Below, piece by piece: positions 27,289 to 30,800 of a stretch of DNA of 64,000 nucleotides; position 1 is the first letter of the stretch, and each line of letters opens with the position of its first letter. The notes under the pieces are model-generated. The model saw only the letters and a program-made list of their open reading frames with translations, ran no database searches and had not been told where the DNA came from. This DNA is from Scatophagus argus. Lineage: Eukaryota > Chordata > Actinopteri > Scatophagidae. The stretch covers positions 15,766,001-15,830,000 of the forward strand of contig NC_058494.1 of the NCBI RefSeq assembly GCF_020382885.2, written 5' to 3'. Made by a program: the position numbers and the translations under genes.

Positions 27289-27398
27289 TTATTCAACTTC
27301 TTGTTCCACTGCAGTGGTCTTCTCACTGACGTAGATGCCATCCAGGAACTTCCTGATGTCCTTCTTTCTGACCGTGGTGGCCTGTTGGATCAAGGCCG
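27289..27398 (-). CDS. rpl9: RPL9 alternative (distal) terminal coding exon
   Basis: A second copy of the last RPL9 exon, about 430 bases beyond the first. The acceptor TCCTTTTCAG precedes CGGCCTTG, which completes the same split Ala codon (G + CG) as the proximal exon. It codes for 35 residues beyond that Ala and a stop. The core [25 protein letters not shown] matches the family, but the tail is TTAVEQEVE instead of GTVVEPDQ. Against the proximal copy the core shows many synonymous and few amino-acid changes. It ends in the gene's only canonical polyadenylation signals. Use of this exon would give a 193-residue L9 instead of 192. Confidence 0.8.
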
Positions 27399-27832
27399 CT
27401 GAAAAGGAGTAGAAGATCCAAACGTTAAGGGAGAGAACTGACAGGCAGTGGAACAACAACAATGAAAATATGTAAGCACAAAATGCTACATTGCTGAGGC
27501 CTGACAGCATTGCTCGTGTCATGGAGCCTGAGACTTGTTCCAAATACATCAAAATAACTAAGATTTAACAACTCAAATTTTAGTTACATGCTCTGGTTAA
27601 TGCTCAATTAGGACATTAAAATGATGTCAAAAGGAGGAAGGAAAAGAAAGAGGAATTTTGTTGTTAACCACTCTGTGTAGTCCCAAAACCACATAACACT
27701 GAAAGACGTGTTTACATTGGAAAAAGAAATAACAAGCAAAAACAAAAAAAAAAAAAAAGAGAGAAAACAGATAGGCAAACAAAGGACGCTTCGACGGCAT
27801 TGTCTAACCTCTACGAGTGCAGATGTTAACTT

Positions 27833-30800
27833 TTACTGATCCGGTTCCACTACTGTTCCCTTCTCAGACACGTAAATACCGTCCAAGAACTTTCTGATAT
27901 CCTTATTTTTGACTGTGGTGGCCTGTTGGATCAGAGCAGCTGGAACAGAGAGAAGTTGGGATGATAAACAACACGTCACATCACATACAGGATCACAACA
28001 GAGAAGGTGGGCGGAGGGATGAACACTGACAGATATGGTGCACACAGGAAGTACTAACATGGTTACAGCACAGTTGACGGTGTTTTGTACAACAACGTCC
28101 AGTTTAGAGAATAAAAGGTGCAGCACATTAAAGATAACTGAAGTCATTGGGGTGCCTGTCTGAGGAGGGGTGAGATGATAAACTTCCAAACGTATAACGT
28201 CTGGACATCTTTGCTTTTCCCTGGTGAAATAATTAGTTAGTTTTGACTCTTCAGCTCCTTAAAGTTATTTAAAGTTATTGCTCAGAGTGCTCACAAATCA
28301 GCACATGTAACATTTGAGAGGAGACTGCAAGTTGATTTTATTCTACAATAAACTACAATAAGACAACAAATATTAGGGAGCCACTGACTTCAGTCATCTT
28401 TGCATTCAACCACTGAATAGTGAATACTAATAGTATTGGAATTAACCTAATATCATCATATACATTTCAAGTCACACAAAGAAGTGGCTGCAATTTTCTG
28501 CATCACAATATTTAAGACTTATCAATGACAAAGCTACCAGCAGACACTACTGGTAATGAGGAATACTATTACTTCATATGGCTGGAAAAGGATACTATCC
28601 AGCCATATAATGGCAGAAACATGTCAATGAACTCATTGCGACAGTTTGAGGAAAAATCTGTAAAAGGAGGTGCTACAGGATCTGACAGGATTAGCTACAA
28701 CACCAAAAGACCGATATAAAACTAAACAGAGACTGTAATCAGCAGACTGTTGCAGGAACGTCTACAGGGAGGTGCCAGCCCTCTGCCAATCACATGTCAC
28801 CAACAGATTTCATGATGTGTGTTTACTTTGACAGAATGGGAAATTATTTTACATCAAGCTGAATCCCCGAACTGAACTGATTATATCCCACTGTTGAGGC
28901 AATGACCAACAACCGTACGTGCGAGTTCAACCACTGGGAAGGATTTCAGCACTGACAGTGTTACGAATCCTTCGACTCCAACGTGATGAAAAACGACAGC
29001 CATGTAGAACAGCTGGAGAGACAAAGGTGCACAGCATACCTGAGTTTGACACCAGCTCAATGTCGTTACCCTCCAGGATCAGCTCGTCCTTCTGGGCAGC
29101 TGAGACTGAACAGTTAACACCTGGGAGACAGAGGGGAGAAAGAGTGATCTTCAACATCAATAACAGTGAGATAAAATTACTTCTACAGCACACTTAAACC
29201 TGAGGACAAGATAAAAGTGCATCTCAGTGTCGGATGGTGGAGGAGCTGCTGTGAAAAACGCATTATTTCTGTCCTCCACAGGTTGAAATATAACAAACAA
29301 GCTTTTGAAATAAATCACCATGGGCTGGGGCAAATTTTAAGCAATTAATCGAGAAATTAATCTGCAGCCCTATTTAGTTCACTGGTTTAGACCAAAACAG
29401 ACAGCCCCATTTGGTTATTTTACACCAAAGCTCAAATAAACTGAAAAATAATAATACTCGTATACCAACACAGAAGTATTGAAAGATACAGAAGTATCAG
29501 TATTCCCCACCTCTACTGACAACAGCTAAATTTAGTCCCTCCCTTATTACATCTCAAAAGCTTGAATCTTACAGAAAATAAATACAATATTGTTCTCATA
29601 ACTACAATATTTCCAACACTTGCAGACTCACCATTTCTCATTCGGACACGGCGGATGTACTTCTCGCCCAGGAAGTTCCTGATCTCCACCATAGTTCCAT
29701 TCTCCTGAATGACGACGTTAATGGGGAAATGGGCGTACACAGAACGCATTTTGTACCGGAAACCCTGCAGTCAGAGGCGAGAGGGGCAATGAGGCGAACC
29801 GTGAAGGCAAACAAAATCCTTTTGTTCTACCAACAATAACCAACTGTACAGCTTAAAACCACACAACAGAAATCATGACTACAAAATATTCTAACTGCAC
29901 CTCATAAAGGCTGGGCCCGGAGCCCGTTACAGCACCTTGACACTGGAATAATAAGTCACTCAATAATGAGTGTAATCTCACCAAAGTGACCCCCTTGATC
30001 ATGTTCTGGACGTGGCTGCAGATGGTGCGGACTGTGGCCAGCTCCTTCCTGTTTCCCCACCATTTATCCACACGGAGCTGAAGAACACACAGGCACAGCA
30101 GCTCACATCATTTTCAAATTGAAACAACTACCGTATAAGTTCATTACCAGAAAAGGAATCAACATCAATGATTTAGTTAATTACCGAACAAATTAGCAAA
30201 ACAAATCTTTAGCTTATTGGCTTGTTCCAGCCTGTTTTAGATTTTAAAATCATTTTACAGTAATTAACGAGCCGATTTCAGAATGAAGACACGCTTCTGT
30301 CTGAAAAACACTGTCTACATTAATCCATCTCTTGGTTGAGAGTGTTTAGAACTCATTTAAAAGAACATCCGTAATATACTATAATATACTGCTAAAACAC
30401 TATTTTATTTTGAAGCAGCAATTTGCTGACTGTAAGCTACTTCTTTCATAAACTTTTATAGCCCGATTAATTAGTATATTAGGGCTATTTTCCATCTTCC
30501 TTGCGACGGTATAAACTTTCAATCCACAGAATGTATCAAAATGTACAAATCAACAGCTATGCTTAAGCCGCAATCAATATAAATGAGGGACTGAATTTTT
30601 ATGTGTGCGTGTTACAGGAGAACGATCAAAGAACACTCCTTTCTCCATCAGTTTGATGGCTTGTCTAATTTTTAAATGGATTATCGCGGGAATGATTCGA
30701 GCATACCGCCTTGCCGTATTTGAACCCGCCTTCACATTATACCACCAACATTAACTGTAGAATTTTTCACAGTACAAAATATTTTGCATCACTTCAGGCA

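What the first reader, a model, noticed from the sequence alone, without database searches (positions are those of the whole stretch)
27289..27939. RPL9 carries two selected versions of its terminal coding exon
Two tandem exons (27939-27833 and 27398-27289) each have a good acceptor, enter in the same phase by completing the same split Ala codon, and end in a stop. Across 27 aligned core codons I count 11 synonymous differences and 3 amino-acid changes (K to R, N to K, G to T); then the tails diverge (VVEPDQ versus AVEQEVE). A young duplicate would not be so different at silent sites, and a dead one would not keep its protein. This points to an old duplication with both copies in use, giving two L9/uL6 forms with different C-terminal tails. 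That would be built-in ribosome heterogeneity from one gene, and I know of no description of it.
Basis: partly seen in the sequence, partly recalled or inferred. Interest (0 to 1): 0.75.

Follow-up and report, generated by a model that had tools for sequence, protein, structure and literature searches.

The report
RPL9 gene with two alternative endings
In what appears to be a fish genome, the gene for ribosomal protein L9 carries two old, different copies of its last coding piece, and both have kept a working protein sequence, so the animal may build ribosomes with two slightly different versions of this protein; whether it does so is not shown.

Summary
On the minus strand, RPL9 (uL6) has two tandem, in-phase, stop-ended copies of its terminal coding exon: A (27939-27833) and B (27398-27289). 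Either completes a full-length protein, of 192 or 193 aa. Simulation rejects the idea that B drifted freely since the duplication; it could have been unconstrained for roughly the last tenth of that time at most. The genome search found no other RPL9 copy or retrocopy. A keeps the vertebrate-type ending; B is derived.

That both are expressed is inferred. The only AATAAA signals lie at or after B; A has at best a weak AGTAAA. I had no RNA, proteomics or other-fish DNA. No listing or passage that I saw describes the event. However, one paper lists '60S ribosomal protein L9 isoform X1' for medaka, so database annotation probably already holds more than one isoform.

Verdict: most likely a real, old pair of alternative terminal exons. 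This is a known kind of splicing in an unexpected gene. Specialised ribosomes remain speculation.

The parts
31069..31114 (-). RPL9 first coding exon (ATG at 31114)
   Evidence: reading frame and splice donor
30823..30938 (-). RPL9 coding exon 2
   Evidence: frame and splice sites
29982..30077 (-). RPL9 coding exon 3
   Evidence: frame and splice sites
29632..29764 (-). RPL9 coding exon 4
   Evidence: frame and splice sites
29040..29120 (-). RPL9 coding exon 5, ending in the shared donor CAG|gtatgc that must join A or B
   Evidence: frame; donor score 8.35
27833..27939 (-). terminal coding exon A (vertebrate-type ending, ...[26 protein letters not shown], stop)
   Evidence: 34 of 36 residues as in PDB chain 7oya_H1 (zebrafish, species recalled)
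27289..27398 (-). terminal coding exon B (derived ending, ...[27 protein letters not shown], stop)
   Evidence: 31 of 36 residues as in 7oya_H1
27257..27262 (-). AATAAA poly(A) signal shortly after the B stop (another AATAAA, at 27293, overlaps the B stop)
   Evidence: motif scan of 28000-27000
27832..27837 (-). AGTAAA, possible weak poly(A) signal overlapping the A stop, with a T-rich tract at 27780-27721 downstream
   Evidence: motif scan and composition; candidate only, no chance control was run
27803..27811 (-). best donor-like site after the A stop (GAG|gttaga, last exon base 27809), score 5.9, below the five RPL9 donors (7.2-11.2)
   Evidence: candidate only
27426..27467 (-). intron stretch upstream of the B acceptor that can pair with the tail of B (27467-27439 with 27320-27291) or of A (27464-27426 with 27862-27834)
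   Evidence: predicted -26.8 kcal/mol each; 8 of 500 and 3 of 200 shuffled introns as good; lead only

Best explanation
An old tandem duplication of the terminal coding exon gave RPL9 two alternative last exons. Shown: both copies have a plausible acceptor, the same phase, an intact frame and stop, and a protein sequence kept by selection for most of the time since they split. Inferred: the donor at 29040 is joined either to A, giving the ancestral C-terminus, or past A to B, giving a uL6 with K>R, N>K, G>T and V>A changes and a tail one residue longer. The choice would be made as in other alternative last exons. The upstream exon A has a weak 3' end (AGTAAA and a T-rich tract, or else run-through or splicing into B as 3' UTR); the downstream exon B has a comparable acceptor, a branch-point-like CTTAAC and AATAAA signals. 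For A's 3' end I rate a cut soon after AGTAAA most likely (about 45%), run-through to the B site 30%, splicing into B 25%; these odds are judgement. Because A ends in a stop, an mRNA holding both would still make form A. uL6 sits in the GTPase-associated centre of the large subunit (PMC6678285, passages), so two tails could tune assembly or factor handling, but that step is speculation.
For: Intact frames and splice sites. Constraint test: over 27 codons dN/dS is about 0.05 and dS about 1.4; over 32 codons the bootstrap 95% range of dN/dS is 0 to 0.31. Third-position G+C of B (25 of 36) is like the rest of the gene (116 of 157) and above intron G+C of 37% (p = 1e-4). No other source for the exon in the genome search. 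Chain 4v6w_CH (Drosophila, species recalled) has SEKTT as B does. Human tandem-duplicated exon events are enriched at the C-terminus, 77 of 236 (PMC9741552 section 6). Medaka L9 carries an 'isoform X1' label.
Against: No junction reads, ESTs, peptides or orthologous fish DNA could be examined. No retrocopy of either spliced form was found. A has no AATAAA or ATTAAA of its own. The test rests on about 30 codons of one genome, and the bootstrap upper limit of dS is unbounded. A recent death of B is not excluded (last 5% of the time neutral: P = 0.33; last 10%: P = 0.08). Two fish splicing papers have no hit for rpl9 in their main text (PMC8933327, PMC12159805; passages). PMC7671327 (passage) names RPL9 among proteins without significant deviation from the common tissue pattern; it did not concern these exons.
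Confidence: 0.72

Rival explanations
1. Both exons are used but the two proteins are equivalent. The duplicate is kept for expression level, 3'-end choice or redundancy, as concluded for the yeast uL6A/uL6B paralogs, and not for specialised ribosomes. (A narrower version of the best explanation, not exclusive of it.)
For: The core changes are few (K>R, N>K, G>T, V>A) and G>T has a natural parallel in the chain 4v6w_CH (Drosophila, species recalled). The yeast uL6 pair was judged functionally redundant (PMC6678285 passages).
Against: The tails differ at several adjacent residues and in length; nothing here measures function.
Confidence: 0.4
2. Exon B is now unused or dying: it was a working alternative exon for most of its history and has lost use recently in this lineage.
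For: Simulation allows up to roughly the last 10% of the time since duplication without constraint. All four amino-acid changes in the first 32 codons lie on B, judged against 7oya_H1.
Against: Acceptor, frame, stop, poly(A) signals and RPL9-like third-position composition of B are all intact.
Confidence: 0.12
3. Exon B is the main ending in this animal and A the minor one. (Compatible with the best explanation.)
For: B has the AATAAA signals and a short 3' end; A has lower third-position G+C (19 of 35) than the gene body (Fisher p = 0.026).
Against: A versus B alone is not significant (p = 0.23). A is the copy with the vertebrate-type protein sequence.
Confidence: 0.3
4. Exon B acts as RNA (3' UTR or regulatory structure) in A-type mRNAs and is not translated.
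For: A has no AATAAA or ATTAAA before B; the B tail can pair with the intron upstream of B.
Against: Differences fall mostly at third codon positions (10 of 15 over 27 codons) and 12 of the 14 changed codons are silent, which marks protein constraint.
Confidence: 0.05

Closest known systems
Tandem duplicated exon substitution events (homologous exons used exclusively), e.g. the 236 human events of PMC9741552 (abstract, section 6 and passages seen)
   Same: Adjacent homologous exons, mostly mild changes; C-terminal swaps are common there (77 of 236).
   Different: The main text of that paper has no hit for 'ribosom', 'RPL' or 'RPS'; expression of both forms is not shown here.
[quoted passage not shown] PMC11162997, abstract and introduction seen)
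   Same: One ribosomal protein gene giving several forms by alternative splicing, discussed as ribosome heterogeneity.
   Different: RPS24 uses microexons (3-30 nt), not homologous duplicated exons.
Yeast uL6A/uL6B paralogs (PMC6678285, passages)
   Same: Two near-identical uL6 forms in one organism (98.5% identity).
   Different: Two genes, not two exons of one gene; judged redundant.
Mouse Rpl9 transcript variant inferred from array probes in seminal vesicles (PMC2267211, passages)
   Same: Tissue-dependent variation near the 3' end of Rpl9.
   Different: No duplicated exon in the passages seen; probe-level inference.

Membership tests
Ribosomal protein L9 / uL6 gene | Full-length match to vertebrate uL6 | tested here: met
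   form B against 7oya_H1 (zebrafish, species recalled) over residues 1-191, E 3.9e-111
Ribosomal protein L9 / uL6 gene | Neighbouring genes as at the human locus (RFC1, UGDH; recalled) | tested here: met
   RFC1-like lid domain at 11444-11968 and UDP-glucose dehydrogenase family domain at 42896-43399; 2 of 10 ORFs scanned had a hit, 10 of the 29 listed were scanned
Tandem duplicated exon substitution | Adjacent homologous exons in the same phase with plausible acceptors | tested here: met
Tandem duplicated exon substitution | Both copies under protein-level constraint | tested here: met
   one genome only, recent release of B not excluded
Tandem duplicated exon substitution | Mutually exclusive use in transcripts | not testable with these tools
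   no RNA data
Tandem duplicated exon substitution | Conservation across species | not testable with these tools
   no other fish genome held; viral contigs gave no relative and genome contigs gave 3 loci, all MAGs named as bacteria or archaea
Alternative last exon | Each terminal exon has its own 3' end signal | tested here: inconclusive
   B: AATAAA at 27293 and 27262; A: AGTAAA at 27837 and ACTAAA at 27584 only

The most novel reading that the evidence does not exclude
A ribosomal protein gene with no other copy found in its genome has kept, over a large part of fish history, two competing last exons that put two different uL6 tails into the GTPase-associated centre. The choice is enforced by one intron stretch (27467-27426) that can pair with the tail of either exon, in the manner of competing-structure mutually exclusive splicing, and is set by tissue or stage.
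Probability: 0.1. Interest if true: 0.82.

Novelty: new member of a known kind. Interest (0 to 1): 0.55.

Why it matters
Ribosomal proteins are usually regarded as invariant, and heterogeneity is often sought in paralogous genes. One gene with two long-maintained coding endings in a core protein of the large subunit gives a clean, testable case: remove one exon and leave the gene and the other ending in place.

Tried and rejected
The Pfam family search of the genome found no match at E 0.001 (two candidates scored), probably because exons are scored one by one; the protein search replaced it. Rfam found no family above its gathering score at 26000-33000. The scan of viral contigs gave no relative; genome contigs gave 3 distant loci from MAGs, not fish. 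A retrocopy that would have recorded a spliced form was looked for and not found: 6 of 6 matches are this gene's own exons, the short first coding exon unmatched, and the tool calls its counts lower bounds. Gene conversion as the reason for the likeness was rejected by argument, since it would have evened out silent sites too. Assembly artefact was rejected because the copies differ at 21% of the repeated stretch.

A 21-nt inverted repeat in the intron before A (28130-28150 with 28381-28401) folds better than shuffles (z -3.8) and matched only itself in the genome, but 3 of 100 shuffles reached it and one sequence gives no ground for a function. The pairing stretch upstream of B lies in a region with a modest fold z of -1.8 and is kept only as a lead; cut to 27462-27440 alone it pairs less well, at -23.1 (B) and -18.9 (A). 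The intron before A showed no such pairing with either tail (190 and 185 of 200 shuffles as good). Papers on maternal and somatic fish ribosomes were sought (listing only) and not read.

Full report
What is there. The window lies in a 570.7-Mb genome of 48 contigs. The gene is RPL9 on the minus strand: the best PDB match of form B is 7oya_H1, 60S ribosomal protein L9 (zebrafish as recalled, the table names no species), and RFC1-like and UDP-glucose dehydrogenase domains lie on either side, as I recall for the human locus.

The two endings. After the shared donor at 29040 there are two acceptors, before 27939 (A) and 27398 (B). Both join in frame, complete the same split Ala codon and end in a stop: form A 192 aa, form B 193 aa. 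The repeat found mechanically is 107 nt at 79% identity, most of the exon plus 11 nt of intron; in 100-nt flanks the scores lie between the shuffle mean and the best of 300 shuffles. Both acceptors are in the range of the gene's other five on a recalled matrix.

Is it selection? Over 27 codons NG86 gives dS 1.37 and dN 0.066; over 32 codons the bootstrap range for dS is 0.5 to unbounded and for dN/dS 0 to 0.31, and six of ten fourfold sites differ. Because A could be constrained while B drifts, I simulated that case: with 8 mutations per copy 1.2% of 3000 runs had 2 or fewer amino-acid changes, with 12 mutations 0.07%, with 16 or more none, and no run at any of nine settings reached the observed pair of counts. 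If B was constrained and then released (45 mutations per copy), release for the last 5, 10 and 20% of the time gives P = 0.33, 0.08 and 0.001. So both copies were protein-coding for most of their history; a recent loss of B is not excluded. These tests use one genome and about 30 codons.

Which is ancestral? The A tail matches 7oya_H1 at 34 of 36 residues, B at 31 of 36 (letters). The vertebrate chains (species recalled) in the printed alignments, a part of the hits, have VKNK and SEKGT. B's K>R, N>K, G>T and V>A are therefore most simply placed on B's branch; SEKTT also occurs in 4v6w_CH (Drosophila as recalled), so that change is compatible with a working protein. Third-position G+C is 116 of 157 in the gene body, 19 of 35 in A, 25 of 36 in B, against 37% intron G+C; A is lower than the body (p = 0.026), B is not (p = 0.68), and A and B do not differ significantly (p = 0.23).

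How it would work. The 3' ends differ. B is followed by AATAAA at 27262, and another overlaps its stop at 27293; between A and B there is no AATAAA or ATTAAA, only AGTAAA over the A stop and ACTAAA at 27584 among the 13 hexamers sought, with a T-rich tract at 27780-27721. The best donor-like site after the A stop, GAG|gttaga at 27809, scores 5.9 against 7.2-11.2 for the five RPL9 donors scored. So form A mRNAs may end just after the A stop, run on to the B site, or splice into B as 3' UTR; I rate the first most likely, and only RNA data can tell. A weak upstream and strong downstream end is a usual layout of alternative last exons (recalled). A possible switch: the intron upstream of B can pair with the tail of B (27467-27439 with 27320-27291) or of A (27464-27426 with 27862-27834) at -26.8 kcal/mol each; 8 of 500 and 3 of 200 shuffled introns did as well. 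The two are not independent, since the tails share AGTGGAAC; the local fold z is only -1.8; and there is no covariation test. RNA structure is one of the known ways to enforce exclusive exon choice (PMC7969005, passages).

What is known. Tandem duplicated exon substitution is an established kind of splicing, enriched at C-termini (77 of 236 human events; PMC9741552 section 6); that paper's main text has no hit for ribosom, RPL or RPS. RPS24 makes several forms by microexon splicing (PMC11162997, abstract and introduction). Yeast has two uL6 genes, judged redundant; uL6 lies in the GTPase-associated centre, bridging the sarcin-ricin loop and uL11 (PMC6678285, passages). Two fish splicing papers have no hit for rpl9 (PMC8933327, PMC12159805; passages); the first names rps21 and rpl36a in its splicing results. 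I saw no paper on duplicated RPL9 terminal exons in ten searches of open-licence PMC papers, mostly from listings and abstract starts; most subscription journals are not held. A table in PMC6473766 lists '60S ribosomal protein L9 isoform X1 [Oryzias latipes]' as the annotation of a protein seen in horse mackerel muscle (passage). By NCBI's naming practice (recalled) this means that more than one medaka isoform is predicted; I could not see whether these are A and B.

Verdict. The sequence finding is real and the selection argument is sound within the limits of one genome. Two used uL6 forms is the best reading (0.72); functional difference between ribosomes is open.

Noticed in passing
28130-28150 and 28381-28401: 21-nt inverted repeat (90% complementary) in the intron before exon A; folds with z -3.8, matches only itself in the genome search, 3 of 100 shuffles have one as good.
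   Followed up: partly
31775-31806: Pyrimidine-rich stretch ending CGGCGAG|gtgagg, looks like the noncoding first exon of RPL9 with a TOP-like start (sequence); not tested.
   Followed up: no
11444-11968 and 42896-43399: RFC1-like lid domain and UDP-glucose dehydrogenase family domain, i.e. RPL9 neighbours as recalled for the human locus.
   Followed up: partly
27376-27390 (B) and 27917-27931 (A): Codons 4-8 of the two exons are identical (ATC CAA CAG GCC ACC) although 14 of the other 22 of the first 27 codons differ; could be chance or an exonic splicing signal.
   Followed up: no
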